Below, piece by piece: positions 39,136 to 62,343 of a DNA stretch of 64,000 nucleotides; position 1 is the first letter of the stretch, and each line of letters starts with the position of its first letter. The notes beneath the pieces are model-generated. The model saw nothing but the letters and a program-made list of their open reading frames with translations. It ran no database searches and was not told where the DNA came from. The DNA comes from Nitrospira sp. MA-1 (GTDB lineage Bacteria; Nitrospirota; Nitrospiria; Nitrospirales; UBA8639). The DNA lies in assembly GCA_032139905.1 (NCBI GenBank), contig JAQJDB010000005.1:169001-233000 (forward strand). The letters run 5' to 3'. A program made the position numbers and the translations under genes.

Positions 39136-39167
39136 GCGGCGCCTCCTGGTTGTTCGTATGTCTGTTT

Positions 39168-39191
39168 AGACGGAAGCCCACAAAAATTTCC
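39168..39191 (-). promoter_or_regulatory. Candidate ECF-sigma promoter for the second receptor gene
   Basis: Read on the minus strand: GGAAATTTTTG, nine bases, then GTCT. GGAAAT and CGTC are the FecI-type -35 and -10 words as recalled. The same AAATTTTTG/GTCT pair is found upstream of the other receptor gene (21202-21225). It sits about 35-55 bp before the receptor start. Confidence 0.45.
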
Positions 39192-39229
39192 TCACTTCTT
39201 CTGCCAAAGATTGTGAGGAAAACGATTTT

Positions 39230-40225
39230 TTAAAAGAGGATGACGAACCGGTTGGCAAGATTGAACATGTGAGTTGGAAAGGTCTTGGCAAGGAGGGAGA
39301 GGCTCTTGGAGGGATCTTCCAGATTGTATGTACCTGTGACCTGCATGTCGCGGATGGGTTGATTCAAAAGCAGGATCGTGCCTGGATAATACCGGCGTAC
39401 CTCGTCAATTACCTGTTCCAGCGGGACTCCATTGACGATGAGCCGTCCATTTAACCAGGCCGATACCGTCGCGAGATCGACGGAAAAAGGACGACCTAAT
39501 CGACCGTGTTCAAATTGGACCCGGGATCCGGCGGATACGAGCGCGGGCAAATTTTGATCATGCAGACTACTGACTTCAACCGTCCCTTCAAGCACCGTCA
39601 CCAGTTCCTGATCCTGCTGAGTTCGAACCATAAATTCCGTTCCCACTGCGCGGGTAGCGGTTTGTTGACTTTCGACGACGAACGGACGATGTGAATCAGG
39701 TTGGACGTTGAACGAGGCTTCACCTTTCAGCAAACGGATTCGTCGAGCGCTTTGATCAAATGAGGTGGCAATGGCTGTTTGTGTATTGAGTATGACTGTG
39801 GATCCGTCCGGTAACGCAATCGTTCGTTGTTCCCCGATGGCTGTCTGGTAGTCTGCCTGAAGCCACGTCAGTGGATCATAGTGGACGATCGCCATTGTGA
39901 ATAGCATGGCACAGGCCGCAATCGCCCCCGCATGCTGCAGCCAACGGCGAGGAGTCGCGGATGGTTGAGGAAGGAAGGATGCTGGTTCCTGCGCGCGTTG
40001 AGTGGCGGCTGCGTGAAGATCCGGGTCCCCCCAGATGGCCGATACTTTCTGAAAAGCCTGTAAATGTATGGTGCTTTTGGCCTTCCAGGCTTCGAAAGCC
40101 TGTTGGTCTTCCGGGGAAACCCGACTGTTATGTAGTCGCACGACCCAGGCAATCGCTTCTTGTCTTAACGTGGTCTCGTCCTCATGGTAAGACGGGTTTT
40201 CGAACTGTTTGTCTGTTGGTGCCAT
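39230..40225 (-). CDS. FecR-family anti-sigma/regulator, second iron-signalling locus
   Basis: This 331-residue FecR has an N-terminal DUF4880 part (EAIAWVVRLHNSRVSPEDQQAF), a membrane helix near residue 95-112 (AGAIAACAMLFTMAIVHY), the FecR periplasmic domain (IGEQRTIALPDGSTVILNTQT, LLKGEASFNVQPDSHRPFVV, AVGTEFMV) and a receptor-contacting STN-like end (VRRYYPGTILLLNQ, VTGTYNL). It should restrain and license the sigma factor encoded 81 bp upstream, depending on the receptor encoded 94 bp downstream. It is a paralogue of the FecR at 20084. Confidence 0.92.
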   Translation of the reverse strand: MAPTDKQFENPSYHEDETTLRQEAIAWVVRLHNSRVSPEDQQAFEAWKAKSTIHLQAFQKVSAIWGDPDLHAAATQRAQEPASFLPQPSATPRRWLQHAGAIAACAMLFTMAIVHYDPLTWLQADYQTAIGEQRTIALPDGSTVILNTQTAIATSFDQSARRIRLLKGEASFNVQPDSHRPFVVESQQTATRAVGTEFMVRTQQDQELVTVLEGTVEVSSLHDQNLPALVSAGSRVQFEHGRLGRPFSVDLATVSAWLNGRLIVNGVPLEQVIDEVRRYYPGTILLLNQPIRDMQVTGTYNLEDPSKSLSLLAKTFPTHMFNLANRFVILF

Positions 40226-40306
40226 AGACTGCCCTCGATCCTCGATATGCCCGGCGTTGAAAGAAAGGGCTAGTATATCTAGTGACGAATTTGTGGGCCA
40301 ATCCCC

Positions 40307-40825
40307 TCACTCATCGGCATCAAGAGGATCAAACAGGGTACAGAACTGATCCAAGGCGCGCATGAGCAGCTTCTCCACCCCGCTATCCGAGATGCCCATG
40401 CGTGTGGCGATTTCACGGTAAGAATAGCCGTAGACACGATAGAGGAGAAACGCTTCCCGGGTTCGTGGAGGAAGTTTGTCGATTGCCCGAAGGGATAACT
40501 GAAACCGCTCCTTGCCGAGCAGGATGCGCTCCTGGCAGGGCGATCCGCAGGGCACCTCCATGGCGACATCCAGGGAATCGACTGCATGAAAGGGGCGTTT
40601 TTGTTTTCGGAGATAGTCGATTGCCAGATTAGTGGCAATTCTATGCAACAGGGCGCGGGGGTGCTCCACGGCTTGGGTGTTCACCAGACCCAAGAGTTTC
40701 GCATAGGTTTCTTGCATGAGATCCGCTGCGGTATCCCGAGAGTTGACCATGGTCACGAGACGACGGGTCAGTTCGTCCCGATATTGATGAAACAGATCTT
40801 CAATTTGTTCAGAGGTAAGAGTCAT
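40307..40825 (-). CDS. ECF sigma factor, FecI/PvdS-type, second locus
   Basis: This 172-residue ECF sigma factor has region 2 (LFHQYRDELTRRLVTMVNSRDTAADLMQETY, ALLHRIATNLAIDYLRKQ) and region 4 (KLPPRTREAFLLYRVYGYSYREIA, MGISDSGVEKLLMRALDQF). It heads a sigma-FecR-receptor set. A Fur-box match lies 23 bp upstream of the ATG (40848-40866), so it is probably made only in iron shortage. No good ribosome-binding site is visible. Besides its own receptor, it could drive the NRPS cluster, as PvdS does for pyoverdine (inference). Confidence 0.92.
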   Translation of the reverse strand: MTLTSEQIEDLFHQYRDELTRRLVTMVNSRDTAADLMQETYAKLLGLVNTQAVEHPRALLHRIATNLAIDYLRKQKRPFHAVDSLDVAMEVPCGSPCQERILLGKERFQLSLRAIDKLPPRTREAFLLYRVYGYSYREIATRMGISDSGVEKLLMRALDQFCTLFDPLDADE

Positions 40826-41052: not shown

Positions 41053-41412
41053 ATGGTGAATGCGAAAACTGCCCTTGATGCCTACCAGGTTGACTTCGAA
41101 GAATGTGTTTCTCTTCCCCCGATTCCCAAATGGCATGCTTGTCTAACACGGCACCGGTTGAAACCCAGCAAACAGCGGGATGTAATTCTTGCCGCATTTG
41201 CGAGGCAAAAACACGTCACGGCTCCAGCTTTATATGGGGTACTTTTCGAAGAAGGACACAGAATTTCCTTGGGGACTGTGTATCGGACCTTGAACCTATT
41301 GTGTAAATTGGGATTTGCCAAGACTCGACGCTTCTATTCCCAAACTCTCTATGAACATGTTTTGAATCAGACTCAGCAACAGAACAATCGAATCTCTTGC
41401 CGGCTGGTTTGA
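41053..41412 (+). CDS. Fur-family protein lacking the C-terminal metal-binding domain (truncated or atypical)
   Basis: This 119-residue protein carries an N-terminal extension of about 30 residues and a complete Fur winged-helix domain: LTRHRLKPSKQRDVILAAFA, KHVTAPALYGVLFEEGHRIS and LGTVYRTLNLLCKLGFAKTR, then FYSQTLYEHV. The family recognition helix SLGTVYRTL is intact. It stops where the histidine-rich hinge and the zinc/iron-binding dimerisation domain (HHDHLIC..CG) should begin, and I find that domain in no other frame downstream. It is either a decayed Fur gene or a DNA-binding-only form. GGAG is 8 bases before the ATG. It diverges from the second sigma operon. Confidence 0.75.
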   Translation: MVNAKTALDAYQVDFEECVSLPPIPKWHACLTRHRLKPSKQRDVILAAFARQKHVTAPALYGVLFEEGHRISLGTVYRTLNLLCKLGFAKTRRFYSQTLYEHVLNQTQQQNNRISCRLV

Positions 41413-45555: not shown

Positions 45556-48500
45556 ATGAATGTTGAGCACGAGACAATCGTCGATCTTTTACGAATGTGG
45601 GCGAGCCGGATCCCGCAGCAACAAGCCTATATTTTTTTAGTGGACGGTGAAACGGACGCCGTCCACGTGACTTATGAGGAGCTTGACCGGCGAGCGCAGG
45701 CTATTGCTACACGATTGAAAAGTTTAGGTGTCACCGGTGAACGCGCGCTTTTACTGTATCCACCGGGACTTGATTTTATCATCGCCTTCTTCGCCTGCTT
45801 ATATGCAGGTGTGATTGCGGTACCGGCCTATCCTCCGCAACGTAAGCGTACGTTGCCACGCCTGCAAGCTATCCTGACAGATGCACAACCTAAATTAGCG
45901 CTAACAACGACACAAGTTCACGCAAGTGTCGAGCGATTCTGCAATCAGGATTCCGGGTTGGATAATTTAAAGAATCTGCAATGGTTGAGCACTGATGTGC
46001 TCACACCGGACACCGAAACAGTTTGGTGCATGCCTGACATTAACGGTCGGACACTCGCATTTCTTCAATACACATCAGGGTCGACAGGCTTACCGAAGGG
46101 CGTCATGGTCAGTCACGGTAATCTGTTGGACAACGAGCGGGTAATCAAGCAGGCATTTGGACATACGGAGCAAACGGTCGTGCTCGGATGGCTCCCCCTC
46201 TATCACGATATGGGATTGATCGGGAACGTGTTGCAACCTCTGTATCTCGGTGCGCCGTGCGTGCTCATGTCTCCTCTTCACTTTCTGCAGAAGCCGTTAC
46301 GGTGGCTGTCCGCGATTTCGCGATATCGTGCGACGACCAGCGGGGGGCCGAATTTTGCTTATGACCTGTGCGTGCGCCAAACGACTCCGGAGCAGCGCGC
46401 GTCGTTGGATCTCAGTTGTTGGACGGTCGCGTTTAATGGGGCTGAACCGATTCACCCTAGCACGCTGGATCGATTCACGGACGCCTTCAGTGGGTCGGGG
46501 TTCCGTCGGGAGGCGCTGTATCCGTGTTACGGGTTGGCAGAGGCGACCTTGTTTGTTTCCGGGGGTGAGAGGACAAAGCCTCCGGTACTTCGAAGGATTA
46601 ACAAAAACGAATTGCAGGAGCACCGCATCCTTGATCGGACGGAATCCGATGCCGAGATGCAACAATTGGTGGGGTGTGGATATTCACGTTTCGAACAAGA
46701 GATTCGCATTGTAGACCCCGAGTCGTTACGAATTTGTCTGGTTGGCCGCGTCGGAGAAGTGTGGGTGAAAGGGCCTAGCATCGCAAGGGGTTATTGGAAT
46801 CGACCGGAAGACACGTCACGGACATTCGGAGGTTATACCTCGGATACCAGCGAAGGACCGTTCCTTCGAACAGGTGATCTTGGGTTTGTGAAGGAAGGTG
46901 AACTGTTCATCACGGGGCGGTTGAAAGATCTCATCATAATCCGTGGTCGCAACTATTATCCCCACGATGTCGAACTGACGGCACAACAGAGTCATGAGAG
47001 CCTTCGACCGGAAGGCGGCGCGGCGTTCTCGATTACGCTCCAAGAAGAAGAGTCCCTGGTGGTCGTCCATGAAGTGGACTCCCGTCCTGCCTCATTCAAT
47101 GCCCAGATGGTGATAGCCGCAATTCGTCAGGCCATCACCGAACATCATGAAGTACAAGTTGCGGCAGTGGTGCTCATCAAGGCAGGGACACTCCCCAAAA
47201 CGTCCAGTGGAAAAGTTCAGCGAAACCTGTGTCGTCTGAAGTTTCTCGCTCAGGGATTCAATGTGATCGGGCAGTCCGCCCTGCCGACATCTCCTTTTGA
47301 AACCGAATACGAACGGGGAGAGCAAGCAGACCGGGGGCAAGGGAATGAGCTAGAAGCAACCGTCATCGGGATTTGGTCGAAGGTGTTGCAGCAGCCGAGA
47401 ATTCACCTCCAGGACAATTTTTTTGCCATGGGGGGGGATTCATTGCGCGGAATGCAGATGTTGGCTCGTCTACAGGAAATCTGTCGAGTCGATGTGCCGT
47501 TGGATGCGCTTTTCGATTATCCGACCGCGGCGGAATTTGCCGCCCACATCGGGACCCTCACGCCCTCTGTCGAATCGACTTCGGGGACGTCCATTCACCA
47601 TACGTCACGAGAGGGAGCGTCGCCCCTGTCGTTTGCTCAGGAACGGTTCTGGTTTCTTGAGCAGTTATCACCCGGTACTCCGTTTAACAATATTCCCATC
47701 GCACTGCGGCTGAAGGGTTCGCTCGATATCGAGGTCCTCCGTCGATCGCTCGACGAAATTGTTTCTCGTCATGAGATTCTCCGTGCCACCTTCGTTCTAC
47801 GCAATGGCCAACCGGCTCAGATCATTGCACCTCGTCTTGAGCTTCCATTGTTGATAGAGGACTTGCAGCGGGTTTCCGAGTCGAGTCGTGAAGAGCAGCT
47901 TCAAAGCCTGCTCGGAGATGAGGCTCGTCGACCTTTTGATTTGATTAAGGATCCACTTCTTCGCTTTCGATTATTCCGGGTTAGCGAAGCCGACCATGTT
48001 CTTTCGCTGACTATTCATCATATTGTCGCGGACGGTTGGTCGATGGGTATTTTCAGCCGTGAACTGGCAGCGTTGTACCAGGCATTTCTGCAGGGGGGGG
48101 GCTCCCCGTTGCCGGCTCTTCCGGTCCAGTATCTCCATACGGTCATTCAGCAGAGAGAAAGTGTTCGAGAACAAATATTTCAACGGCAGGTGACCTATTG
48201 GCAACAGCGCCTGGACCATGCTCCCCACACCCTGAATCTGCCGTTTGATTTTCCCCGACCGGAAGTACAGGGGTATCGAGGGGCACGCTATGAGTGGACA
48301 TTGGATGGGTCACTTGTCCAGCAGTTGCAGGCGGTTGGGTATCGATATCGGACCACGTTGTTCATGACGTTGCTGGCGACCTTTAATATTCTCTTGTCGC
48401 GCTATAGCGGTCAATCAGATCTCTGTGTCGGAACGCCGGTTGCTAACCGTAACCGGATTGAGTGCGAATCCCTGATTGGTTGTTTCGTCAATTCGGTCGC

Positions 48501-51279
48501 CTTGCGTGCCGATCTTTCCGGCAATCCACCATTTCCTGATTTCCTCGATCAGGTTCGAGCGACGGTTCTTGGCGCCCAGGCGAACCAGGAGATTCCATTC
48601 GAGCGATTGGTCGATGAGTTGAAGGTGGGTAGAGACTTAGGTCATACGCCGATCTTTCAGGTGATGTTCGTCCTGGCGGATCGTCCATCGGATGTCCGTG
48701 CGTTGGGAGGCCTGGAAGCGTGCAGGATGAGTGTGAATACACAAACATCCGTGTTCGACCTGACGTTGGAGATGGCAGAAAAGGCCAACGGGAATCTGGG
48801 GGGAGTATTCGAATACAGTACGGATCTGTTTACGAGCCGGACAATCGTTCGTATGGCCGAACATTTTCAGGCCTTGTTGGCTCAAGTCGTCGCATGTCCG
48901 GAGTCCCGCGTGGATGATTGGCCAATGGTGACGGCGAACGAGCGCGCGTATGTCCTCGTAAACTGCAATGAGACGACAACGCCTTATCCTGATGAGTCTT
49001 GTCTACATCAATTGCTTGAGGCTCGGGTCGCTGAAAGTCCGGATGCCGTGGCGCTGCTGTGCGAGGGGCGTTCGTATGCCTATGACTTCATAAACAGCAG
49101 AGCGAATCAACTCGCCCGGTATTTACGGGCTCAAGGAATCGGTCCGGAGATTCCCGTGGCCCTGTGCGTGGATCGGTCTCTCGAAATGGTGGTTGGTCTC
49201 CTGGGCATCCTCAAGGCCGGCGCGGCCTATGTGCCCATGGATCCGACCTATCCCAAAGAGCGGCAGTCGATCATTCTCAAAGATGTCCACCCCCGGCTGC
49301 TCTTAACGCAAGGGAAATTTTCCGGAGAGCTGCCGGATCAAGCGGTACCGGTCTTTGCACTCGATAGTGATTGGCCCGTGGTGGCCGGGTTTCCGGACAC
49401 CAATTTGCCGAATCTCACGAGCCCCGACAATCTGGCTTACATTCTCTATACCTCCGGGACTACCGGCCGGCCAAAGGGAACCGGCATTTCCCATCGAGCA
49501 CTGGTAAATCACGCGACCGCGATGGTGAGGCAATACGGTCTTGCTTCGACGGATCGTGTCCTTCAGTTTGCATCCGTCAGCTTTGATGTGGCTGCCGAAG
49601 AATGTTTCCCGACATGGATTGCGGGGGCAACGGTGGTGTTGCGCCCCAATGAGCCGGTTCCTGCCTGTACCGATTTCCACACATTTCTTTGCGAGCAGGG
49701 CCTGACTGTCCTGAATCTTCCGACGCCCTATTGGGCGGGGTGGGTCGAAGAGATGGAGCGAATCAGCCTGCCGGTTCCACCGTTGATCAGACTGGTCATC
49801 GTGGGGAGCGAAAAGGCCTTGCCTGCCTCTCTGGTCCGCTGGCGACGCGTCGTTGGAGATCGTGTTGTCTGGTGCAACTCGTATGGCCCCACGGAAACCA
49901 CGGTCACCGCCAGCAGTTATGTGCCAGGACCGGAGGTGGATTGGACAACCATGCCCAACGTACCGATCGGACAACCAATTGCGAATGTCGAGTTGTATGT
50001 TCTTGACTCGAATATGCAGCCCGTTCCGCTCGGTGTGCCGGGCGATCTGTACATCGGAGGACTGGGGCTGGCTCGTGGATACCACCAGATGCCGGCCCTC
50101 ACTGCTGAAAAATTCATTCCGCATCCATACAGCCGTGGGGCAGGGGAACGGTTGTACCGAACCGGTGATCGTGTCCGTCGGCGGCCGGACGGGCAGGTGG
50201 AATTTCTGGGACGACGGGATGAACAGGTAAAGATCCGAGGATTCCGGATCGAGCTTCCTGACATTGAGTTCCATGCGCGCCAATGTCCCCAGGTAAAGGA
50301 GGTCAGAGTGTTTTTGGAATCCGGTGGGGTTCCCGGATGGCCGGCACTCATCGGCGGCCTCAGTGAGATCGAACAAGACCGGAGGCTGCAGGAAGTTGAG
50401 TGTTTGACTGCAGTGGAAGCGCAGTGGGTGTATGACGTGGAATCGAATGCTGAGGAACGGAGGAAGACTGTGATTCAACGAAAGCCGGAGTTTGATGTGT
50501 TCCTGAAAATCAATAACGGAGAGTTCTTAACGCCACCGCGTGAAAATCAGCGCAACTGGCTTATGCGCCGGGCCCTTGACGAATTTTCTGATGATCTCGT
50601 CGCCCTCGACGCAATTTCTAAGCGGTTTGTTTCCGGGTCAGACCGGGTCAGCATCGATCAGAGCTGGACGGGAAGTCGGGCCGAATATACGCCTTCTGAA
50701 CTGATCATCGAAGGGCAACAAGTCATGCAGGATTGGGAAGCGCCCTTGATGAAGGCGATGGCCGACATTGCCACGGAATCCCGTGGCGATGTGCTTGAGG
50801 TCGGATTCGGAATGGGTATTTCAGCGACGTACATTCAGGCCGGTCAACCTCGTTCGCACACCATCATTGAGTGCAACCGTGATGTGATGAATGTGTTTTC
50901 GGACTGGACCGGGCGATACCCGGGTCGGGATATTCGTCTCGTTCAAGGACAGTGGCAGGAAGTCGTTGGGACATTGTCTGACTTTGACGCCGTATTTTTT
51001 GATACCTATCCGGCGAGTGAAGCAGAGTTTGAAGAGACGGTGATCAATAGCATCAACTTTGCCGAAGCCTTTATACCTTCGGCTGCAAAATTATTGCGGC
51101 CGGGTGGCGTATTTACCTATTACACGAACGAGATTGATTCCTTCAGCCGACGGCATCAACGATTCCTCTTCCAGCATTTTAGTTCATTCACCCTCAGCAT
51201 CGTCCGATCGCTGCTTCCGCCGGAGGATTGTCATTATTGGTGGGCAGATTCGATGGCTGTCGTCAAGGCGGTGAAGTGA
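45556..51279 (+). CDS. NRPS: fatty acyl-AMP ligase - ACP - condensation - adenylation (N-terminal part) - guanidino-type N-methyltransferase
   Basis: This 1907-residue megasynthase starts peptide assembly with a fatty acid. Domains: FAAL at about 1-585 (YTSGSTGLPKG at 172; WLPLYHDMGLIGNVLQPLY; SSGKVQR); ACP at 590-665 with phosphopantetheine site S629 (GGDSLRG); condensation at 690-1120 with H821-H822-IVADG; adenylation from about 1150 (YTSGTTGRPKG at 1298, NSYGPTETT about 1440, A8 VKIRGFRIE about 1560). Instead of A9/A10, a methyltransferase follows at 1690-1907 (LEVGFGMGIS, HTIIECN, FDTYP, LLRPGGVFTYY). It resembles guanidinoacetate N-methyltransferase (GAMT), with E1728 and D1816 at the guanidino-binding positions. 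The rest of the adenylation domain is in the next gene, one base after the stop. No strong ribosome-binding site precedes the ATG. The product is an N-acylated residue, perhaps methylated on a guanidino group. Confidence 0.93.
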   Translation: MNVEHETIVDLLRMWASRIPQQQAYIFLVDGETDAVHVTYEELDRRAQAIATRLKSLGVTGERALLLYPPGLDFIIAFFACLYAGVIAVPAYPPQRKRTLPRLQAILTDAQPKLALTTTQVHASVERFCNQDSGLDNLKNLQWLSTDVLTPDTETVWCMPDINGRTLAFLQYTSGSTGLPKGVMVSHGNLLDNERVIKQAFGHTEQTVVLGWLPLYHDMGLIGNVLQPLYLGAPCVLMSPLHFLQKPLRWLSAISRYRATTSGGPNFAYDLCVRQTTPEQRASLDLSCWTVAFNGAEPIHPSTLDRFTDAFSGSGFRREALYPCYGLAEATLFVSGGERTKPPVLRRINKNELQEHRILDRTESDAEMQQLVGCGYSRFEQEIRIVDPESLRICLVGRVGEVWVKGPSIARGYWNRPEDTSRTFGGYTSDTSEGPFLRTGDLGFVKEGELFITGRLKDLIIIRGRNYYPHDVELTAQQSHESLRPEGGAAFSITLQEEESLVVVHEVDSRPASFNAQMVIAAIRQAITEHHEVQVAAVVLIKAGTLPKTSSGKVQRNLCRLKFLAQGFNVIGQSALPTSPFETEYERGEQADRGQGNELEATVIGIWSKVLQQPRIHLQDNFFAMGGDSLRGMQMLARLQEICRVDVPLDALFDYPTAAEFAAHIGTLTPSVESTSGTSIHHTSREGASPLSFAQERFWFLEQLSPGTPFNNIPIALRLKGSLDIEVLRRSLDEIVSRHEILRATFVLRNGQPAQIIAPRLELPLLIEDLQRVSESSREEQLQSLLGDEARRPFDLIKDPLLRFRLFRVSEADHVLSLTIHHIVADGWSMGIFSRELAALYQAFLQGGGSPLPALPVQYLHTVIQQRESVREQIFQRQVTYWQQRLDHAPHTLNLPFDFPRPEVQGYRGARYEWTLDGSLVQQLQAVGYRYRTTLFMTLLATFNILLSRYSGQSDLCVGTPVANRNRIECESLIGCFVNSVALRADLSGNPPFPDFLDQVRATVLGAQANQEIPFERLVDELKVGRDLGHTPIFQVMFVLADRPSDVRALGGLEACRMSVNTQTSVFDLTLEMAEKANGNLGGVFEYSTDLFTSRTIVRMAEHFQALLAQVVACPESRVDDWPMVTANERAYVLVNCNETTTPYPDESCLHQLLEARVAESPDAVALLCEGRSYAYDFINSRANQLARYLRAQGIGPEIPVALCVDRSLEMVVGLLGILKAGAAYVPMDPTYPKERQSIILKDVHPRLLLTQGKFSGELPDQAVPVFALDSDWPVVAGFPDTNLPNLTSPDNLAYILYTSGTTGRPKGTGISHRALVNHATAMVRQYGLASTDRVLQFASVSFDVAAEECFPTWIAGATVVLRPNEPVPACTDFHTFLCEQGLTVLNLPTPYWAGWVEEMERISLPVPPLIRLVIVGSEKALPASLVRWRRVVGDRVVWCNSYGPTETTVTASSYVPGPEVDWTTMPNVPIGQPIANVELYVLDSNMQPVPLGVPGDLYIGGLGLARGYHQMPALTAEKFIPHPYSRGAGERLYRTGDRVRRRPDGQVEFLGRRDEQVKIRGFRIELPDIEFHARQCPQVKEVRVFLESGGVPGWPALIGGLSEIEQDRRLQEVECLTAVEAQWVYDVESNAEERRKTVIQRKPEFDVFLKINNGEFLTPPRENQRNWLMRRALDEFSDDLVALDAISKRFVSGSDRVSIDQSWTGSRAEYTPSELIIEGQQVMQDWEAPLMKAMADIATESRGDVLEVGFGMGISATYIQAGQPRSHTIIECNRDVMNVFSDWTGRYPGRDIRLVQGQWQEVVGTLSDFDAVFFDTYPASEAEFEETVINSINFAEAFIPSAAKLLRPGGVFTYYTNEIDSFSRRHQRFLFQHFSSFTLSIVRSLLPPEDCHYWWADSMAVVKAVK

Positions 51280-51280
51280 T

Positions 51281-51937
51281 ATGGAGGATGCTGTTCAACG
51301 GATCAATCGCCTGACCGAACCGCAGCGAAAACTTCTTCGCTTCAGATTGGGGGGCATGCGGTACGAACGGGAAGGGGAATCTCGACTGGTGGGGTATGTC
51401 GTGCCTTGTGTCCAAGATGCGACGACTGTTCAGGATCTCCGCGGATTTTTGGCAGAACGTCTCCCGGATTATATGGTGCCAAGAACCTGGATTGTTCTCG
51501 ACGCTTTCCCTCTGACATCCCGCGGAAAGGTAGATCGCAAGGCGTTACAGGATATGGCTCGGTCGGCACCGGATGCGGTGTCTCATCAGCAGGGCGCGCC
51601 TCGAAACGACTGCGAGCGAAATATCGCAGCGATTTGGAAAGAAGCGCTGGGTCTGCACGCCGTCGGACTGCACGACAATTTTTTTGATCTGGGCGGGCAC
51701 TCCCTTCTGTTGCCGAAGGTCCTCACTCAGATACGAGCCTTGACCAAGCGCCAGGTGGCGATGGTCGATCTGTTTCGTTATCCGACGGTACAGGCATTGG
51801 CCGCATTTGTCTCGGCGGATGGGGCGCCAATTGTGGAAGCAGGGGCAACGCAACAGGTTCGTGATAAGCGAGAAGCGGGAGTGAGGCGGATGAAGCAGCA
51901 ACGACGACAGAGACAAGAAGCGGTGAGGGGCGAATGA
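51281..51937 (+). CDS. NRPS fragment: C-terminal adenylation subdomain plus peptidyl carrier protein
   Basis: This 218-residue protein completes the adenylation domain begun in the previous gene. Residues 1-30 form a short amphipathic leader (RINRLTEPQRKLLRFRL) like module-start linkers. Then come RLVGYVVP and A9 (LPDYMVPRTWIVLDAFPLT). A10 is RGKVDRKAL with catalytic lysine K83. A carrier domain follows with S141 (DLGGHSLLL). A basic, glutamine-rich tail (residues 195-218) may dock to the PKS. It starts at TGATATG, one base after the upstream stop, which suits reinitiation. Its own stop overlaps the PKS ATG (ATGA). The break lies between methyltransferase and A9, so the two proteins must associate to activate the amino acid. 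Confidence 0.92.
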   Translation: MEDAVQRINRLTEPQRKLLRFRLGGMRYEREGESRLVGYVVPCVQDATTVQDLRGFLAERLPDYMVPRTWIVLDAFPLTSRGKVDRKALQDMARSAPDAVSHQQGAPRNDCERNIAAIWKEALGLHAVGLHDNFFDLGGHSLLLPKVLTQIRALTKRQVAMVDLFRYPTVQALAAFVSADGAPIVEAGATQQVRDKREAGVRRMKQQRRQRQEAVRGE

Positions 51938-54900
51938 CGGACGCCGTGGAGCTATCCAATGAGGACCCAGTCGCTGAGGGCTTGGAAGTAGCCATCGTCG
52001 GGATGGCCGGCCGATTTCCAGGTGCGAACAATCTTGATGAGTTTTGGCGCAATCTTCATGGTGGCGTCGAGTCTGTCTCCACGCTGAGTCGTGAAGAGCT
52101 ACTGGAGTCTGGAGTGGAGGCAAAGGTTTTGGATCGGACGAACTATGTCCGGGCTCGCGCGGTATTAGATGAGGTCGATCTCTTCGATGCCAAATTTTTC
52201 AATATGACACCTAAAGAAGCCGAGATCATGGACCCTCAGCAGCGACTGTTCCTTGAATGTGCATGGGAAACACTGGAACGCGGTGGATATGACCCGGAGC
52301 AATATCAAGGATTGATCGGCGTTTACGCAGGATCGAGCACCAGCGGTTATCTCTTTAATTTATTCCCTCGCCGGATACTCTTACAGTCGGCCGCTGACAT
52401 GGCGGCGATGCTCGGCGTGGAAAAGGATTCACTCTCGACGCGTGTGTCCTACAAATTGAATCTGGAAGGGCCCAGTTTAGCGGTGCAAACGGCCTGTTCG
52501 ACGTCCCTGGTTGCGGTTCATCTTGCCTGCCAAGCCCTGCTGAGTGGTGAATGTGATATGGCCCTGGCAGGCGGTGTCTCTATCAGTGTCCCGCAGAAAG
52601 TGGGCTATCTCTATCAGGAGGGCGGCATCGTCTCTCCGGATGGTCATTGCCGGACCTTCGATGCTGATGCCGAAGGCACTGTCGGCGGGAGTGGCGTGGG
52701 CCTGGTGTTGCTCAAGCGGTTGCAGGAGGCGGAAGCGGATGGCGATCATATTTTTGCGGTGATCAAGGGTTCGGCGATTAATAACGATGGGGCCGCCAAA
52801 GTCGGTTACACAGCCCCTCGTATCGAGGGCCAGGCTAAAGTGATTAGAGCGGCGCACCTGGCATCCGGCGTGACGGCTGACTCCATCTCGTATGTCGAGG
52901 CTCATGGAACAGGGACCCCAATGGGGGACCCGATCGAAGTAGAGGCGCTGACCCAGGCCTTTCGAGCTTCGACGGTTCGTACCGGATTCTGTGCCCTCGG
53001 TTCAGTCAAAACCAATATCGGCCATTTGGATGCTGCGGCCGGCATCGCCGGTTTGATCAAGACGGTACTGGCCCTCTCCCATAGGCAGATTCCCGCAAGC
53101 TTGCATTACGTTCGCCCCAATCCCGCCATCGATTTTTCCGCTACACCGTTTTATGTGAACAGGACCTTGTCGGAGTGGGGGCGTGGCGAGTCACCGCGCC
53201 GCGCGGCCGTCAGTTCGTTCGGGCTTGGAGGCACGAATGCGCATGTGGTTCTGGAGGAGGCACCGTCACCTCAGAGCGCATCTGAAGTGGGTGAGGAAGG
53301 CCGTTGTCAGTTACTTCTGTTGTCGGCCCGGTCGGAAGCGGCCTTGAACGAAACGACAACTCGTCTTGCGACGCATCTCCATGCACATCCGGACCTCTGC
53401 CTTGCCGACGTGGCCCATACTCTTCAATCAGGTCGGAAAGCCTTTCCGTATCGTCGTTGGCTGATGGCCAGGAATACTGAGGAAGCCGTGCGGCTGTTGG
53501 GTCGCCCCATAGTTAGGGGAGGAACCGCCGGCCCTGTGGAAGGAGAACATCGGGTTGCCTTCATGTTTTCCGGACAGGGTTCCCAGTATCCACATATGGG
53601 GCATTCTCTTTATCAGCAACAGTCTCTGTTCCGCGAGCATGTGGATCGGTGCGCGTCGATGTTAAATCGGCGGCTCGATCGGGACATTCGGACAGTACTG
53701 TTTCCTGCCTCTGGTGCAGAAAAGGATCTGATTCATCAGACCAGCCTGACCCAGCCGGCACTGTTCGTGTTCGAGTATGCCCTTGCGCAACTCTGGAAGG
53801 CATGGGGAATTCACCCACATGCCATGATCGGGCACAGCATCGGGGAATATGTCGCGGCCTGCCTATCCGGGGTATTTTCAGTTGAAGACGCGTTGGCGAT
53901 CGTCGCGATGCGCGGGAGATTGATGCAGGAGCTTCCACCCGGAAGCATGCTGGCCGTTCCGCTCACCGAGCTGGAGTTAACACCGTATCTGGGCGGCAAT
54001 CTGGATCTCGCTGCAGTCAATGCTCCTGGACAGTGTGTGGTCTCCGGAGCTGATGACCGGATCGATGCATTGGACCGTACGTTGGCAGCTCAGAGCATTC
54101 GAGGTCGGCGCCTCAAGACCTCGCATGCGTTTCATTCATCCATGATGGATCCGATTCTGAAGCGCTTTGAATCCTTTCTTGCCGGAATAGAAATGCAAGC
54201 CCCCCAAGCTCCCTGGGTATCGAATGTGAGTGGTACTTGGATTCGATCCGAAGAAGCGTTGGATCCCGCTTACTGGTCCCGTCATTTGCGCTCAACGGTG
54301 CGCTTCTCCGATGGGGTTCGAACATTGTTGGAAGAACCGGCGCCGGTATTTTTGGAGATCGGTCCCGGTCGCACGTTGCAAAATCTGGCCAGGAGGCATC
54401 CCGTTCCGGTTGGCTCATTTGTGCTGGCCTCACTTGATGGCCTCGATCAAAAGGCGGCCGGTCAGGACGAAATGCCTGTCATCCTGGCGACGCTTGGTTC
54501 TCTTTGGGGGGCTGGGGTTCGAGTGCATTGGAGCGGTCTGCAGAGCGGGCATCGGCCACGACGAGTTGTTCTGCCGACCTATCCTTTTGAGCGGCAGCGT
54601 TACTGGGTGGAACCTGGTCGGAGTGAACCTGTCCAGGTTCCTGCGTCCGGTAAAAGGCAGGCCGATCTCTCGAAATGGTTTTATCAACCCTCGTGGAAAC
54701 GGTCAGTACTCGTGGCGAAGGGTAAACAACGTCCGGACGAAACGTGGCTGGTTTTTCTCGATGAACGGTCGAGCGGCGCGGGACCTGTCAGAGAGCTGGA
54801 ACGACAGGGCCGGTCGGTGGTCACCGTGTTGGCCGGCAGGGGATTTAAACGGTGTGTCGATGGGACCTATCGAGTAAGACCAGATTCCCGTGAGGATCAT

Positions 54901-56484
54901 GAGTTGTTGCTTCGAGAATTGACCAGCCGGAATCACCTTCCATCCTGTCTCCTGCATGCCTGGACCATCGGGGATGAATTGCAAGAAACAACTGCTACCG
55001 GGCGACTCCAGGTGACACAAGAAAGAGGATTTCTCCATTTGCTCATTCTTGCGCAAATTTTCGGATGCCGGCGCACGGCTCGACTCTCGATCCTCGTCCT
55101 TTCTCAAGGGTTGCATGATGTCACGGGCCAGGAATCATTACGTCCTGAACAGGCCACCGTGCTGGGAGCCTGTCGTGTCATTCCACAAGAGTATCCGGGC
55201 GTGACATGCGGTGTGATCGACCTGGAACAAGTTGCTACGGAGACGCCATTTTTCGATGAAATTTGTGAACGGCTCATCGAGGAAGTCTCCAATCTTGATG
55301 CTGAGACGGTCGTGGCCTACCGAGGTGGACATCGATGGGTACAGACGTTTGAGCCACTCATCCTTGCAGAAAGCGATACAGATACTTCTCTGCTGTGGGA
55401 GGAAGGGGTGTATCTCATTACGGGCGGTTTGGGCGGGGTGGGACTCTGCCTTGCCGAGTATCTCATTCGTACGGTGCATGCGCGGGTGATTTTGACGAGT
55501 CGGACCCTCCCGACTCCTGAGCAGCGTGAGCGTGTGGCCGGCCTGGCGCAATCGGGCGATCGCGTTCTGGTTCTTCAGGCCGATGTCGCTGATCCTGTGC
55601 AAATGCAGGGAGTGATTGATGAAGCCCTTCGACAGTTCGGCCGAATTCATGGGGTGTTTCATGCAGCGGGAATCGCCGGCGGCGGACTTCTGGAGCTGAA
55701 AAACCCGGAATCCGTATGGAATGAATTTCGTCCAAAGGTTTCCGGAGCCTTGGTGCTGGAAGAGGCGTTTCGCGATAGGCAACTTGATTTTGTGATGTTC
55801 TGTTCGTCCCTGACGGCTGTGGTTGGAGGGGTGGGCCAGGCGGCCTATTGCGCGGCCAACGCCTTTCTGGATGCCATGGCACATGCCAGCACGAAAAAAG
55901 GAACACGCGTCATCTCTGTGAATTTCGATCGATGGAAACAGGTCGGTATGTCGGTTGCAGCGGAAGAGTGGCTCAAGACCTTGCAGGTCCCTGAAGAGGA
56001 TTTGGATGGCATGACTCCGCAGGAAGGTCAGGACGTGGTCCACCGAATTCTTTGCGGGCCGAACCTCCCGCAGGTTGCCGTGTCCATCCGTGATCTGCCG
56101 ACAGTGGTCGCTTCCGTTACGCGGATTTCGTTGACGCCATCACAGATGAGGCAGGCAACGACTCCGTCTGTCATCGGAGGCGCCACGGAGTCCTTGGAAC
56201 AAGAGGTGGCAGACTTGTGGCAACAGATTCTGGGCACCGGACGTGTGGGGCTTGAGGATGATTTTTTCCGGGTGGGGGGCGAATCCTTGAGCGCCCTTCA
56301 GCTGTTGAATCGTGTTCAAGAGCTTTTTGGTATCGAGCTGTCGCTCCGCGAATTCTTTGATGCACCGACGGTTTCGGGATTGGTCAAGCAAATTCGCGCG
56401 GCGCGAGCCACCGGAGCACAGCAAGAGCCGAAAATTGTTCCCATTCCTCGTCAAGCCCGACGATTGCGGGGGGCTTCGGTATGA
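51934..56484 (+). CDS. Type I polyketide synthase module KS-AT-KR-ACP
   Basis: This 1516-residue module extends the acyl-aminoacyl chain by one ketide unit and reduces it to a hydroxyl. The ketosynthase (about 15-450) has the triad C188 (TACSTS), H324 (EAHGTGT) and H364 (NIGHLDAAAG). The acyltransferase (about 540-860) has S635 (GHSIGE) and HAFHS at 731, which favours malonyl-CoA. The ketoreductase (about 1155-1400) has TGGLGGVG at 1163-1170 and catalytic Y1305 (YCAANAF). The ACP has S1451 (GGESLSA). There is no dehydratase, enoyl reductase or thioesterase. It overlaps the preceding gene by four bases. It should give a beta-hydroxy acid (statine-like if joined to the amino acid) for the following modules, which lie outside the window. 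Confidence 0.95.
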   Translation: MTDAVELSNEDPVAEGLEVAIVGMAGRFPGANNLDEFWRNLHGGVESVSTLSREELLESGVEAKVLDRTNYVRARAVLDEVDLFDAKFFNMTPKEAEIMDPQQRLFLECAWETLERGGYDPEQYQGLIGVYAGSSTSGYLFNLFPRRILLQSAADMAAMLGVEKDSLSTRVSYKLNLEGPSLAVQTACSTSLVAVHLACQALLSGECDMALAGGVSISVPQKVGYLYQEGGIVSPDGHCRTFDADAEGTVGGSGVGLVLLKRLQEAEADGDHIFAVIKGSAINNDGAAKVGYTAPRIEGQAKVIRAAHLASGVTADSISYVEAHGTGTPMGDPIEVEALTQAFRASTVRTGFCALGSVKTNIGHLDAAAGIAGLIKTVLALSHRQIPASLHYVRPNPAIDFSATPFYVNRTLSEWGRGESPRRAAVSSFGLGGTNAHVVLEEAPSPQSASEVGEEGRCQLLLLSARSEAALNETTTRLATHLHAHPDLCLADVAHTLQSGRKAFPYRRWLMARNTEEAVRLLGRPIVRGGTAGPVEGEHRVAFMFSGQGSQYPHMGHSLYQQQSLFREHVDRCASMLNRRLDRDIRTVLFPASGAEKDLIHQTSLTQPALFVFEYALAQLWKAWGIHPHAMIGHSIGEYVAACLSGVFSVEDALAIVAMRGRLMQELPPGSMLAVPLTELELTPYLGGNLDLAAVNAPGQCVVSGADDRIDALDRTLAAQSIRGRRLKTSHAFHSSMMDPILKRFESFLAGIEMQAPQAPWVSNVSGTWIRSEEALDPAYWSRHLRSTVRFSDGVRTLLEEPAPVFLEIGPGRTLQNLARRHPVPVGSFVLASLDGLDQKAAGQDEMPVILATLGSLWGAGVRVHWSGLQSGHRPRRVVLPTYPFERQRYWVEPGRSEPVQVPASGKRQADLSKWFYQPSWKRSVLVAKGKQRPDETWLVFLDERSSGAGPVRELERQGRSVVTVLAGRGFKRCVDGTYRVRPDSREDHELLLRELTSRNHLPSCLLHAWTIGDELQETTATGRLQVTQERGFLHLLILAQIFGCRRTARLSILVLSQGLHDVTGQESLRPEQATVLGACRVIPQEYPGVTCGVIDLEQVATETPFFDEICERLIEEVSNLDAETVVAYRGGHRWVQTFEPLILAESDTDTSLLWEEGVYLITGGLGGVGLCLAEYLIRTVHARVILTSRTLPTPEQRERVAGLAQSGDRVLVLQADVADPVQMQGVIDEALRQFGRIHGVFHAAGIAGGGLLELKNPESVWNEFRPKVSGALVLEEAFRDRQLDFVMFCSSLTAVVGGVGQAAYCAANAFLDAMAHASTKKGTRVISVNFDRWKQVGMSVAAEEWLKTLQVPEEDLDGMTPQEGQDVVHRILCGPNLPQVAVSIRDLPTVVASVTRISLTPSQMRQATTPSVIGGATESLEQEVADLWQQILGTGRVGLEDDFFRVGGESLSALQLLNRVQELFGIELSLREFFDAPTVSGLVKQIRAARATGAQQEPKIVPIPRQARRLRGASV

Positions 56485-56524: not shown

Positions 56525-58267
56525 ATGAACTTGATCAGATTTTTGATACGCAGTTCCTGGCAATTGCTGCTGGGTTCCATTCTGGCCGGTGTGGTGAGCG
56601 GGCTTGCCGGAGCCGGAATTATTGCGGTCATCCATAGGGGAATGAACGGGACCGATTGGTCGTCCATGCTTGCCTGGAGTTTTCTGGCCCTCGCGGTACT
56701 GGTCGCCGTGACCAAAGCCCTGTCGGAAATTCTGCTGACCAGGTTGGGCCAACGCACCATTTCAGAGTTACGAATGCAGCTGAGTCGACGCATTCTGCAT
56801 GCCCCGCTCCGTCAGTTTGAGGAACTGGGTTCACATCGGTTGCTCGCTGCCTTGAGCGACGACACGGACGTTATCGCGCAGGCCTATGTCCAGTTGCCGC
56901 TTATCTGCGTCAATCTCGCGACGACGATCGGCTGTCTTGCATACTTGGGATGGCTATCCTGGCCACTGCTGATTCTCGTTCTGGCATTTATGGCACTCGG
57001 GAGCATGACGTTCAATCTGCAGGAACAGCGCGCATTGCAATATTTCAAACAAGCACGAGAGACCAACGATGCCCTGTTCGGACATTTCCGTTCCATCATG
57101 GCCGGGATCAAAGAACTCAAGTTGCATCGGCCGCGGCGGGAGGCGTTTCTCGAAACATTGCTTCAGCGAACTGTGAGGGAGTATCAGCGGGACTTTGTCG
57201 GGGGCATGACGGTGTATTCCATCGCGTCCAGTTGGGGAACGTTTCTCTTCTATGCCGTCATCGGCGTCATCCTCTTCCTCTGGCCGTCATGGCGTGACCT
57301 GCCTATTGAGACTGTGGTCGGCGTCACTCTGGTCCTGTTGTACATGATGGGTCCGTTTGCGCAGATTATAGAATTGTTGCCGGGTGTCGGTCGCGCGAAT
57401 ATCGCTCTGAAGAAAATTGAGGCGCTGGGCCTGTCGTTGGCTGCCTCTGCCACGAATCTTACTGGTGAAGCCGTTTCCGGCCCAGCGATTGAACTCGATC
57501 CCAGTGGCTGGCGGTGTCTGGAATTATCAAACGTCACGCATCGGTATTATCGCGAGGGAGAGGATTCCAGTTTTACTGTGGGTCCGATCAATTTAAGTTT
57601 TTCTCCCGGTGAAGTGACGTTTCTCATCGGCGGAAACGGAAGCGGTAAGACCACGCTGGCGATGTTACTGTTGGGTCTCTACACACCTGAGTCTGGAACG
57701 GTTTGCCTCGACGGTGTCCCGATCGAGGACGCCAATCGTGAAGCCTATCGACAATTGTTTTCAACGGTATTCTCGGATTTCTGTTTATTTGATTCCCTGC
57801 TGGGTCTCCAGAGAGACGATCTGGATGCGGAGGCTCTTATGTATTTGGAACGATTGCAACTCCGGTCCAAGGTACAAATCGAGCAAGGCGCCTTCTCGAC
57901 CCAGGCGCTTTCTCAAGGACAACGGAAACGACTGGCGCTGTTGACGGCCTATGTTGAAGACCGGCCGTTTTACGTGTTCGATGAATGGGCAGCCGATCAG
58001 GACCCGCTGTTTCGAAAAGTGTTTTACACGGAGCTTCTTCCGGATCTGAAGGCACGGGGCAAGACGGTTTTCGTCATTACGCATGACGACCAATATTTTC
58101 CGTTGGCCGATCGGTGCATTCGAATGGATTACGGAATGATCGTGGATGTCGCCGCACAATCCACGATTTGCAGCGAGCAGGATTTTGCATTGTCTCAATC
58201 CACGGGGTCCGGAGTGGCCGGGAACCCAGTACGGGCGGGTTCTTTATTCAAGGAGGATCAAGTATGA
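56525..58267 (+). CDS. Cyclic peptide/siderophore export ABC transporter (PvdE/SyrD family)
   Basis: This 580-residue half-transporter has six N-terminal membrane helices (from SSWQLLLGSILAGVVSGLAGAGIIAVIH) and a C-terminal ATPase: Walker A IGGNGSGKTT with K375, signature LSQGQRKRLALL and Walker B FYVFDEWAADQDP. The DEWAADQDP and THDDQYF segments are hallmarks of the PvdE/SyrD branch that moves siderophore or lipopeptide precursors to the periplasm. ATG at 56525 is used (AAGGAA upstream); the longer frame overlaps the PKS. Its stop overlaps the next start (ATGA). With the periplasmic acylase encoded downstream it suggests export of an acylated precursor. Confidence 0.94.
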   Translation: MNLIRFLIRSSWQLLLGSILAGVVSGLAGAGIIAVIHRGMNGTDWSSMLAWSFLALAVLVAVTKALSEILLTRLGQRTISELRMQLSRRILHAPLRQFEELGSHRLLAALSDDTDVIAQAYVQLPLICVNLATTIGCLAYLGWLSWPLLILVLAFMALGSMTFNLQEQRALQYFKQARETNDALFGHFRSIMAGIKELKLHRPRREAFLETLLQRTVREYQRDFVGGMTVYSIASSWGTFLFYAVIGVILFLWPSWRDLPIETVVGVTLVLLYMMGPFAQIIELLPGVGRANIALKKIEALGLSLAASATNLTGEAVSGPAIELDPSGWRCLELSNVTHRYYREGEDSSFTVGPINLSFSPGEVTFLIGGNGSGKTTLAMLLLGLYTPESGTVCLDGVPIEDANREAYRQLFSTVFSDFCLFDSLLGLQRDDLDAEALMYLERLQLRSKVQIEQGAFSTQALSQGQRKRLALLTAYVEDRPFYVFDEWAADQDPLFRKVFYTELLPDLKARGKTVFVITHDDQYFPLADRCIRMDYGMIVDVAAQSTICSEQDFALSQSTGSGVAGNPVRAGSLFKEDQV

Positions 58268-59661
58268 CGGTTCATGTCGATGAAATATGGGAATCCATTG
58301 CGACCGGTCAAACTGCCCGGATAGAACATCTGGGCGCCAATCCCTATCTGGAGCGGCAAGCGCTGAGAGAGTCGAGTGCACGCAGTTACCCGCGCCGGCT
58401 GCCACTGGCGCTCAAGAAGGGGAAGGGCATCTATGTTCAAGATCACGAGGGGCGGACCTATATTGATTGTCTGGCCTGTGCCGGGGCATTGGCTCTTGGC
58501 CACAATCATCCTGTCGTTGTCGAGGCGATCAGCCGGATGCTGCGGGACGAACTTCCGTTTCAGACGCTGGATTTGACCACGCCGGTCAAAGACCGCTTTG
58601 TGGAGAAAGTGTTTGAGTGTTTGCCGAAGGAATTTGCCGATGGTGCGAAAATTCAATTCTGTGGACCATCCGGGGCCGATGCGGTCGAGGCGTCGATCAA
58701 ACTGGTGAAGATCGCGCGTGACCGACGGACGATCCTGGCATTTCAAGGGGCCTATCATGGGATGACGCATGGCACGCTGGGACTGACAGGCGATCTGGGC
58801 CCGAAAAGAGCCATCAGCGGGCTCATGGCTGATGTCCATTTTCTACCCTATCCCTATGCCTATCGTTGCCCGTTCGGTGTGGGAGGCGAAGAGGGGCATC
58901 GTCTCTCCAGTGCGTATATTGAGCGGCTCCTTGACGATCCCAACAGCGGTATCGTGGAGCCGGCCGGGATGATCCTGGAGGTAGTCCAGGGGGAGGGCGG
59001 AGTTATTCCGGCGTCGCTGAGCTGGCTTCAGGAAATCCGCCGTATTACTCGAGAGCGCAACATTCCCTTAATTGTCGACGAAGTTCAAACAGGCCTCGGT
59101 CGAACGGGGACCCTGTTTGCGTTCGAACAGGCGGGCATTGTGCCGGACGTCGTTGTCTTGTCCAAAGCGATCGGCGGCGGATTGCCGTTGAGCGTGGTGG
59201 TCTATCGGCCTGAATTGGATCGATGGACGGCAGGGGCGCATGCAGGCACCTTCAGGGGTAATCAAATGGCGATGGCGACCGGGGAGGCCACGATTGATTT
59301 TATTTGCCGCGAGCAGGTGGCATTGCATGCCGCCAGAATGGGCGAACGGCTGATGAGCAGCTTGAAACGAATACAGGGTGACTCACGGAGTCTCGGCGAT
59401 GTGCGGGGTCGAGGTTTGATGGTGGGTGTGGAAGTTGTCGACACCAACAAGTCCTCGGATAAGTCCGGGGGGTTCGCTGCTGCGCCGGCTATCGCGAGCA
59501 AGATCCAGAACGAAGCCTTGCGGCGAGGACTGATACTGGAACTGGGCGGGCGGAATAACAGTGTTGTGCGGTTTCTTCCTCCCTTGATCGTCACAACGGA
59601 ACAGATCGATACGATCTCGACAATTTTCTCAGAGGCCGTCTCGGCGGCGGAGCGGGATTAA
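58264..59661 (+). CDS. Diaminobutyrate--2-oxoglutarate aminotransferase (class III, PvdH/EctB-like)
   Basis: This 465-residue PLP aminotransferase of class III has K301 as Schiff-base lysine (LSKAIGGGLPLS), FCGPSGADAVEASIKL, FQGAYHGMTHGTLGLTG, LEVVQGEGGV and LIVDEVQTGLGRTG. The whole pattern is that of the DABA aminotransferase family, which makes L-2,4-diaminobutyrate from aspartate semialdehyde with glutamate as donor. Length equals PvdH. A strong AAGGAGG precedes the ATG, which overlaps the transporter stop. It should supply DAB as a monomer for NRPS modules further right. Confidence 0.92.
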   Translation: MTVHVDEIWESIATGQTARIEHLGANPYLERQALRESSARSYPRRLPLALKKGKGIYVQDHEGRTYIDCLACAGALALGHNHPVVVEAISRMLRDELPFQTLDLTTPVKDRFVEKVFECLPKEFADGAKIQFCGPSGADAVEASIKLVKIARDRRTILAFQGAYHGMTHGTLGLTGDLGPKRAISGLMADVHFLPYPYAYRCPFGVGGEEGHRLSSAYIERLLDDPNSGIVEPAGMILEVVQGEGGVIPASLSWLQEIRRITRERNIPLIVDEVQTGLGRTGTLFAFEQAGIVPDVVVLSKAIGGGLPLSVVVYRPELDRWTAGAHAGTFRGNQMAMATGEATIDFICREQVALHAARMGERLMSSLKRIQGDSRSLGDVRGRGLMVGVEVVDTNKSSDKSGGFAAAPAIASKIQNEALRRGLILELGGRNNSVVRFLPPLIVTTEQIDTISTIFSEAVSAAERD

Positions 59662-62106: not shown

Positions 62107-62343
62107 ATGGGAAACGACGAACAGGAAGATACGACAGTCTACAAAGTAGTGATGAACCATGAGGAGCAATATTCCATCTGGCCGTCCTATCGAGATAATC
62201 CTCTCGGATGGTCGGATGTGGGGAAAACCGGCCTCAAAGAAGAATGTTTGGACTATATCAAGGAGGTATGGACGGATATGCGTCCGTTGAGTTTGCGAAA
62301 GTGGATGGCCGAACAAGCTGAAAAAACGGGTTCTTCATGCTAA
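62107..62343 (+). CDS. MbtH-family adenylation chaperone
   Basis: This 78-residue MbtH-like protein has the family string split as [31 protein letters not shown] and [15 protein letters not shown], with all three conserved tryptophans. These proteins bind and activate adenylation domains, and here possibly the split one. AAGGAGG precedes the ATG. Its end overlaps the thioesterase gene by 7 bases. Confidence 0.97.

What the first reader, a model, noticed from the sequence alone, without database searches (positions are those of the whole stretch)
50620..51279. NRPS-embedded methyltransferase that looks like guanidinoacetate N-methyltransferase
The methyltransferase following A8 is not of the usual NRPS N-MT type. 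Its motifs VLEVGFGM, HTIIECN, GQWQEVV, FDTYP, LLRPGGVFTYY and LPPEDCHYWW track the GAMT/RMT2 family from end to end. VMQDWEAPLM precedes motif I exactly as VMERWETPYM does in animal GAMT. The two acids that hold the guanidino group in GAMT (Glu45 and Asp134 of the rat enzyme, from memory) correspond to E1728 and D1816 here. This suggests methylation of a guanidino nitrogen (for example on a carrier-bound arginine) rather than of the backbone amide.
Basis: partly seen in the sequence, partly recalled or inferred. Interest (0 to 1): 0.88.

Follow-up and report, generated by a model that had tools for sequence, protein, structure and literature searches.

The report
Creatine-enzyme-like methyltransferase inside a peptide synthetase
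A Nitrospira peptide-making assembly line carries, inside a split amino-acid-loading domain, a methyltransferase related to the enzyme that makes creatine; it most likely methylates the guanidine group of a carrier-bound arginine, a modification not described in the open-access literature searched here.

Summary
Observation confirmed. Residues 1689-1907 of the 1907-aa NRPS (window 45556-51279) form a methyltransferase whose only convincing solved relatives are guanidinoacetate N-methyltransferases (GAMT): phmmer E 3e-28, structural Z 25 against 15.7 for the next fold. It matches no Pfam family. E1728 and D1816 align with rat Glu45/Asp134 and are invariant in every relative examined. Guanidino methylation is supported by neighbours elsewhere. 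In two Streptomyces genomes the next gene is a GntD/VioC-like arginine/enduracididine hydroxylase. In two Allokutzneria genomes the domain stands alone among genes resembling the arginine-to-4-guanidinobutyryl-CoA starter pathway, whose acyl unit has no alpha-amine. A-domains paired with the methyltransferase usually have an acidic specificity pocket. Substrate and methylated nitrogen remain inferred; GAMT and BlsL precedents favour delta-N. The adenylation domain is split: core plus methyltransferase on one protein, C-terminal subdomain plus carrier on the next. This recurs across phyla and has an experimental precedent, corallorazine Crz1/Crz2, which however makes backbone N-methylglycine; Crz1's sequence could not be compared. 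The cluster looks like a FAAL-started lipopeptide siderophore (Dab, Ser, Asp codes). A 2024 review lists only main-chain N- or side-chain O/S-methylating insertions, so this is a new variant of a known kind.

The parts
45556..51279 (+). NRPS, 1907 aa: FAAL (45556-47265), ACP (47359-47550), C (47614-48948), A core to A8 (49015-50310), N-terminal extension, GAMT-like MT, stop
   Evidence: Pfam/NCBIfam; coordinates
49015..50310 (+). Adenylation core A1-A8, specificity code DVENIGSVTK (N. defluvii DVENIGSITK)
   Evidence: alignment to GrsA, whose sequence was confirmed against 1amu
50311..50619 (+). Linker; its second half (from ~50497) is a conserved extension that accompanies the MT even in stand-alone homologues
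50620..51276 (+). GAMT-like SAM methyltransferase domain
50737..50739 (+). E1728, equivalent of rat GAMT Glu45
51001..51003 (+). D1816, equivalent of rat GAMT Asp134
51277..51283 (+). TGA-N-ATG junction splitting the adenylation domain; same spacing in all Nitrospira homologues read
51281..51937 (+). A subdomain (A9-A10) plus carrier protein on a separate ORF
   Evidence: Pfam AMP-binding_C and PP-binding
51934..56484 (+). PKS module KS-AT-KR-ACP extending the methylated residue
56312..58267 (+). Cyclic-peptide export ABC transporter (TIGR01194 match starts at residue 73, so the true start is probably later)
58114..59661 (+). Diaminobutyrate-2-oxoglutarate transaminase (Dab supply)
59667..62048 (+). 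Penicillin-amidase family acylase (weak PvdQ match)
62107..62343 (+). MbtH-like protein
62337..63089 (+). Type II thioesterase
63196..63999 (+). TauD-family dioxygenase (complete 345 aa beyond the window), candidate Asp beta-hydroxylase
36547..40825 (-). STN-type TonB receptor, FecR, ECF sigma factor (siderophore uptake signalling)

Best explanation
The domain is a GAMT-superfamily guanidino-N-methyltransferase built into an NRPS module. The module is FAAL-ACP-C-A(core)-MT on one protein and A(sub)-PCP on the next; the two halves assemble in trans into a working adenylation domain, as shown for Crz1/Crz2. It loads a cationic residue, most likely L-arginine, onto the PCP. The MT then transfers a methyl group from SAM to the side-chain guanidine, held by E1728 and D1816, most likely at the substituted (delta) nitrogen as in creatine and blasticidin. 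The fatty-acylated methylarginine is passed to the PKS module and then to Dab/Ser/Asp modules to give a lipopeptide siderophore. Shown here by computation: fold, homology, acid pair, split, cluster content. Inferred: arginine as substrate, methylation on the PCP, delta-N, the in-trans assembly of this A domain, the siderophore role.
For: GAMT is the best sequence and fold match by a wide margin. Glu45/Asp134 equivalents and Trp19, Met41, Trp44 are conserved in the window MT and all 13 other sampled members of this MT family, in the eight small bacterial GAMT-like proteins and in rat GAMT. In two Streptomyces genomes the MT ends an A-PCP-MT protein whose coding sequence overlaps the start of a gene scoring above the NCBIfam cutoff for GntD, L-enduracididine beta-hydroxylase, with arginine hydroxylases as PDB relatives. 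A related GntD/VioC-like gene, below cutoff, lies two genes upstream of the MT in Streptacidiphilus. In two Allokutzneria genomes the MT is a stand-alone gene beside a CN-hydrolase, acyl-CoA-ligase-like enzyme, L-amino-acid monooxygenase-like oxidase and PKS, matching the arginine to 4-guanidinobutyryl-CoA route of azalomycin (PMC5082578). A-domain codes paired with the MT have Asp/Glu at 239 or 278 in 7 of 8 lineages against 1 of 12 other non-Dab codes (Fisher p 8e-4). [quoted passage not shown]
Against: No product, substrate or activity is known for any member of this family. The code DVENIGSVTK was not found in the searched literature, and the nearest published DVEN code belongs to the Ahp position of cyanopeptolin. 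The paired codes differ between lineages, so they need not load the same residue; one (L036) is degenerate. The only characterised split A domain of this architecture, Crz1/Crz2, carries an nMT that makes backbone N-methylglycine (PMC11342130), and its sequence could not be compared. The Fisher test treats related codes as independent. Azalomycin's guanidine methyl groups are reported without the nitrogen being resolved in what was read.
Confidence: 0.78

Rival explanations
1. The domain is a backbone (alpha-amino) N-methyltransferase that has merely been recruited from the GAMT fold; the methyl ends on the amide nitrogen to which the fatty acid is attached.
For: It sits between A8 and A9, the usual place of backbone N-MTs (PMC11355689). 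The identical split architecture in corallorazine makes N-methylglycine.
Against: No sequence match to NRPS N-MTs was listed. The guanidine-binding acid pair is invariant. Stand-alone homologues occur with a guanidinobutyryl-type starter that has no alpha-amine. By size Crz1 has about 860 residues after its C2 domain against 776 here, which fits a longer conventional nMT.
Confidence: 0.12
2. The enzyme methylates another cationic side-chain nitrogen, for example that of ornithine, lysine or an amidino group, rather than arginine's guanidine.
For: The acidic pocket only indicates a positive charge; the same cluster uses Dab in three modules.
Against: Two carboxylates bracketing a planar guanidinium are a GAMT feature, and neighbours in other genomes act on arginine or enduracididine.
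Confidence: 0.07
3. The MT is degenerate or structural, a relic of gene insertion that leaves the A domain broken.
For: The A domain is cut by a stop codon after the MT; one homologue (L036) has a degenerate A domain.
Against: SAM motif, acid pair and junction are conserved at 80-85% identity across Nitrospira and in other phyla with intact frames. Crz1+Crz2 shows that such a split A domain is active when both parts are mixed.
Confidence: 0.03

Closest known systems
Guanidinoacetate N-methyltransferase (rat 1xcj, human 3orh)
   Same: Fold (Z 25), motifs from end to end, Glu45/Asp134 pair, Trp19, Met41, Trp44
   Different: Fused to an NRPS adenylation domain with an extra N-terminal segment; GAMT acts on free guanidinoacetate. 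The 160-180 loop, which I recall binding the guanidinoacetate carboxylate, differs (invariant N-E in this family)
BlsL (blasticidin S guanidine N-methyltransferase)
   Same: Reported GAMT-like (33% identity to GAMT), methylates delta-N of an arginine moiety in natural-product biosynthesis (PMC5572114)
Interrupted adenylation domains with M insertions (TioS, TioN, KtzH, McyA)
   Same: Methyltransferase inserted in an A domain, in most cases between A8 and A9 as here
   Different: Reviewed members methylate main-chain N or side-chain O/S (PMC11355689); the MT here is GAMT-type and the A domain is not rejoined in the same polypeptide
Corallorazine Crz1/Crz2 split adenylation domain
   Same: A(core)-MT ending in a stop codon, A9-A10 plus T on the next ORF; shown active in vitro when mixed (PMC11342130)
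   Different: Its nMT is described as conventionally embedded and gives N-methylglycine

Membership tests
GAMT superfamily (GAMT/RMT2-type guanidino N-MT) | Significant sequence similarity over the full catalytic domain | tested here: met
   E 3e-28 phmmer, 7.6e-37 profile, full-length profile alignment
GAMT superfamily (GAMT/RMT2-type guanidino N-MT) | GAMT fold | tested here: met
   AlphaFold model pLDDT 82.5; 3orh Z 25.4 (197 residues, 1.9 A), 1xcj Z 25.1 (203, 2.1 A); next 15.7
GAMT superfamily (GAMT/RMT2-type guanidino N-MT) | Glu45 and Asp134 equivalents | tested here: met
   E1728, D1816; invariant in family, small GAMT-likes and rat. Side-chain geometry not measured
GAMT superfamily (GAMT/RMT2-type guanidino N-MT) | Methyl transfer to a guanidino nitrogen | not testable with these tools
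   needs assay
GAMT proper (creatine synthesis) | Free guanidinoacetate as substrate, single-domain protein | tested here: not met
   Domain of an NRPS with FAAL, C, A and carrier domains; filed only as a relative
Interrupted A domain with M insertion | MT between A8 and A9 | tested here: met
   A8 upstream in the same ORF; A9-A10 at start of 51281-51937
Interrupted A domain with M insertion | Both A parts on one polypeptide | tested here: not met
   Stop TGA at 51277-51279; split conserved in Nitrospira homologues
Conventional NRPS backbone N-MT | Similarity to known NRPS N-MT domains | tested here: inconclusive
   No Pfam MT family at 1e-3 and no NRPS N-MT chain at E<=10; absence of a hit is weak, and Crz1 could not be compared
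Beta-hydroxyaspartate lipopeptide siderophore clusters | FAAL, Dab/Ser/Asp codes, TauD hydroxylases, TonB/FecR/sigma, exporter, MbtH, TE | tested here: met
   this is gene content only, iron binding and Asp hydroxylation are not testable here

The most novel reading that the evidence does not exclude
A rare but widespread family of assembly-line guanidino-N-methyltransferases, found in Nitrospirota, Thermodesulfobacteriota, Pseudomonadota and Actinomycetota, acts on carrier-bound arginine-type or guanidinoacyl units. In several lineages the MT cassette lies inside the A-domain gene and keeps its own stop codon, so that one adenylation domain is made from two or, in some actinobacteria, three consecutive genes. 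In Nitrospira it yields N-methylarginine-containing siderophores.
Probability: 0.55. Interest if true: 0.72.

Novelty: new variant of a known kind. Interest (0 to 1): 0.62.

Why it matters
The methylating insertions listed in a 2024 review of adenylation domains act on backbone nitrogen or side-chain oxygen/sulfur. A guanidine-specific one adds a side-chain nitrogen chemistry to assembly lines, gives genome miners a marker for N-methylarginine-type residues, and points to a methylated lipopeptide siderophore in environmentally important nitrite oxidisers. The recurrent split after the MT is useful for engineering, because it suggests a natural place at which an adenylation domain can be divided.

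Tried and rejected
Programmed frameshift joining the two halves: not favoured, because the distance and frame between the MT stop and the next start differ between lineages (TGA-N-ATG in Nitrospira, TGA-CG-ATG in Nocardiopsis, a longer gap between stop and ATG in the Thermodesulfobacteriota locus). Sequencing error as cause of the split: rejected, the split occurs in many independent genomes. Direct comparison with Crz1: no tool gave its sequence; the search of the phylum around G430 (listed genomes up to 5.6 Mb) apparently did not reach Corallococcus and found no NRPS-sized hit of family strength. SznE/variochelin/methylarginine literature searches gave no matching system. Plasmid collection: only distant stand-alone MTs. 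The VIA-align list names no NRPS N-MT in the rows shown; this absence proves nothing. Antisense ORFs over the gene (for example 49303-50478 minus) were taken as spurious.

Full report
Check of the observation. The region is the last 219 codons of a 1907-aa ORF at 45556-51279. All quoted motifs are present. phmmer against the PDB ranks rat and human GAMT first (E 3e-28 and 1e-27), with nothing else convincing; the next unrelated entries start at E 0.014. A 12-member family profile gives E 7.6e-37 to GAMT. Pfam has no hit at 1e-3. The AlphaFold model of residues 1586-1907 (pLDDT 82.5) matches human GAMT at Z 25.4 and rat GAMT with bound guanidinoacetate at Z 25.1, then drops to 15.7 for spermine synthase. 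E1728 and D1816 align with Glu45 and Asp134. That these two acids hold the guanidinium in rat GAMT is from general knowledge, not from a structure read here. Chance is excluded by these scores.

Anatomy. Pfam and NCBIfam give FAAL-ACP-C-A up to A8, then the MT, then a stop. The missing A9-A10 part and the carrier protein open the next ORF, one base after the stop codon (junction AAG TGA T ATG). A PKS module KS-AT-KR-ACP follows. Further on lie an exporter, a Dab transaminase, a penicillin-amidase-family acylase, MbtH, a type II thioesterase and a TauD dioxygenase. Beyond the window the cluster continues with modules whose codes I read as Dab-Ser-Dab-Ser-Asp-Dab-Asp, a fused TauD and a TE; the reading of DIWELTADDK, DVWHISLIDK and DLTKIGHVGK as Dab, Ser and Asp is from my own knowledge. 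Upstream are a TonB receptor with an STN domain, FecR, an ECF sigma factor and a short Fur-family protein. The whole reads as a lipopeptide siderophore locus; iron binding is inferred.

Relatives. The window's genome belongs to the Nitrospirales: relatives with the gene are named Nitrospira defluvii, other Nitrospira and a Nitrospirales MAG. Strong matches occur in 14 of 396 sampled Nitrospirota genomes, the window's own included (the other four of the 18 matches are weak or partial), 3 of 393 Streptomyces and 1 of 300 genomes of the order of the Pseudoduganella genome, that genome itself, so the family is rare. A named-genome scan adds Thermodesulfobacteriota, Micromonospora, Allokutzneria (two), Pseudoduganella, Streptacidiphilus, Nocardiopsis and Streptomyces at 53-65% identity, and small stand-alone GAMT-like proteins at 35-38%. 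The family members share an N-terminal segment that the small proteins lack in the alignment. In the tree the small bacterial proteins and rat GAMT fall together with full support on a long branch; other deep branches are unresolved.

Split adenylation domain. In Nitrospira, the Thermodesulfobacteriota locus and Pseudoduganella the A core and MT share one ORF and the A subdomain is separate. In Streptacidiphilus and Nocardiopsis the A core, the MT and the A subdomain lie in three separate ORFs, the MT in a different frame from its neighbours, so the MT gene sits between the halves of the A gene; in Streptomyces L036 the A-core and MT frames are likewise separate, but its A domain is degenerate and no A subdomain was matched there, only a carrier. 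In two other Streptomyces the A domain is intact and the MT follows the carrier. In Micromonospora an intact A domain is followed by a separate MT. In Allokutzneria the MT stands alone. The variable spacing after the MT stop argues for separate translation rather than frameshifting. The precedent is corallorazine: Crz1 ends after an nMT, Crz2 starts with A9-A10, and the mixture is active (PMC11342130).

Substrate. Three lines point to a guanidine. First, the acid pair, invariant in all sampled family members. Second, neighbours: in two Streptomyces the gene overlapping the MT's end scores 375 bits (one of the two copies was scanned; the other is 95% identical) against a cutoff of 345 for GntD, and its PDB relatives are named L-arginine hydroxylases and CmnC; Streptacidiphilus has a related gene below cutoff (319.5); the Allokutzneria loci carry a flavin oxidase closest to an L-amino acid oxidase/monooxygenase, a CN-hydrolase, an AMP-ligase and a PKS (families were scanned in L032, L047 is collinear by eye), the set described for 4-guanidinobutyryl-CoA in azalomycin biosynthesis, where the guanidine is methylated by an unidentified enzyme (PMC5082578). 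That starter has no alpha-amine. Third, the paired A codes have an acid at 239 or 278 in 7 of 8 lineages against 1 of 12 others excluding Dab (p 8e-4; 2 of 13 and p 2e-3 if Dab is counted among the others). The third line only shows charge, and the codes differ from each other.

Which nitrogen. [quoted passage not shown] By analogy the product would be Ndelta-methylarginine; this is inference and could be wrong.

Main counter-argument. Crz1, with the same split, makes N-methylglycine. From published numbers (7131-bp gene, C2 at residues 1076-1516) about 860 residues follow C2, against 776 after the C domain here, and the authors call the nMT conventionally embedded; both suggest a different, larger MT, but this is not a test.

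Verdict. Membership of the GAMT superfamily is met on sequence, fold and acid pair; enzymatic function is untested. A 2024 review lists interrupted-A methyltransferases as main-chain N or side-chain O/S types (PMC11355689). Novelty is judged against an open-access library only.

Noticed in passing
L034 8430-11291, L035 8404-11310 (L036 4071-11352 similar, but A domain degenerate): In Streptacidiphilus and Nocardiopsis one adenylation domain is encoded in three consecutive ORFs: A core, methyltransferase, A subdomain plus carrier. In Streptomyces L036 the A-core and MT frames are also separate, but no A subdomain was matched.
   Followed up: partly
L032 7252-20657, L047 7236-20660: Allokutzneria guanidinobutyryl-type PKS starter locus with its own GAMT-like methyltransferase; azalomycin's guanidine methyltransferase is reported as unidentified.
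   Followed up: partly
L030 3666-12039: Thermodesulfobacteriota mini-cluster: MbtH-like protein (by eye), carbamoyltransferase, another methyltransferase, C-A-GAMT, A-sub-PCP with partial thioesterase match; a possible small carbamoylated methylarginine peptide.
   Followed up: no
L054, L055, L062: A separate Streptomyces group of stand-alone MTs keeps the Glu and Asp of GAMT ('AMQAWERDLM', 'FFDPALD') but lacks the N-terminal Trp; flanking proteins look like a CHAT-type domain protein and a nucleoside deoxyribosyltransferase by eye.
   Followed up: no
L039, L041, L043: Small GAMT-like proteins occur in candidate phyla (Staskawiczbacteria, Nomurabacteria, Magasanikbacteria), where creatine metabolism would be unexpected.
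   Followed up: no
window 41044-41412: Short Fur-family protein (122 aa) near the siderophore uptake genes; may be a truncated or divergent regulator.
   Followed up: no
L027 16645: In one Nitrospira homologue the module after the PKS has a Gly-type code (DILQLGLVWK) instead of Dab, so the peptide probably varies between species.
   Followed up: no
window 50311-50619: Conserved N-terminal extension of the MT (two short strands and a long helix in the model) has no assigned fold or role; it could be a lid or a carrier-docking element.
   Followed up: no
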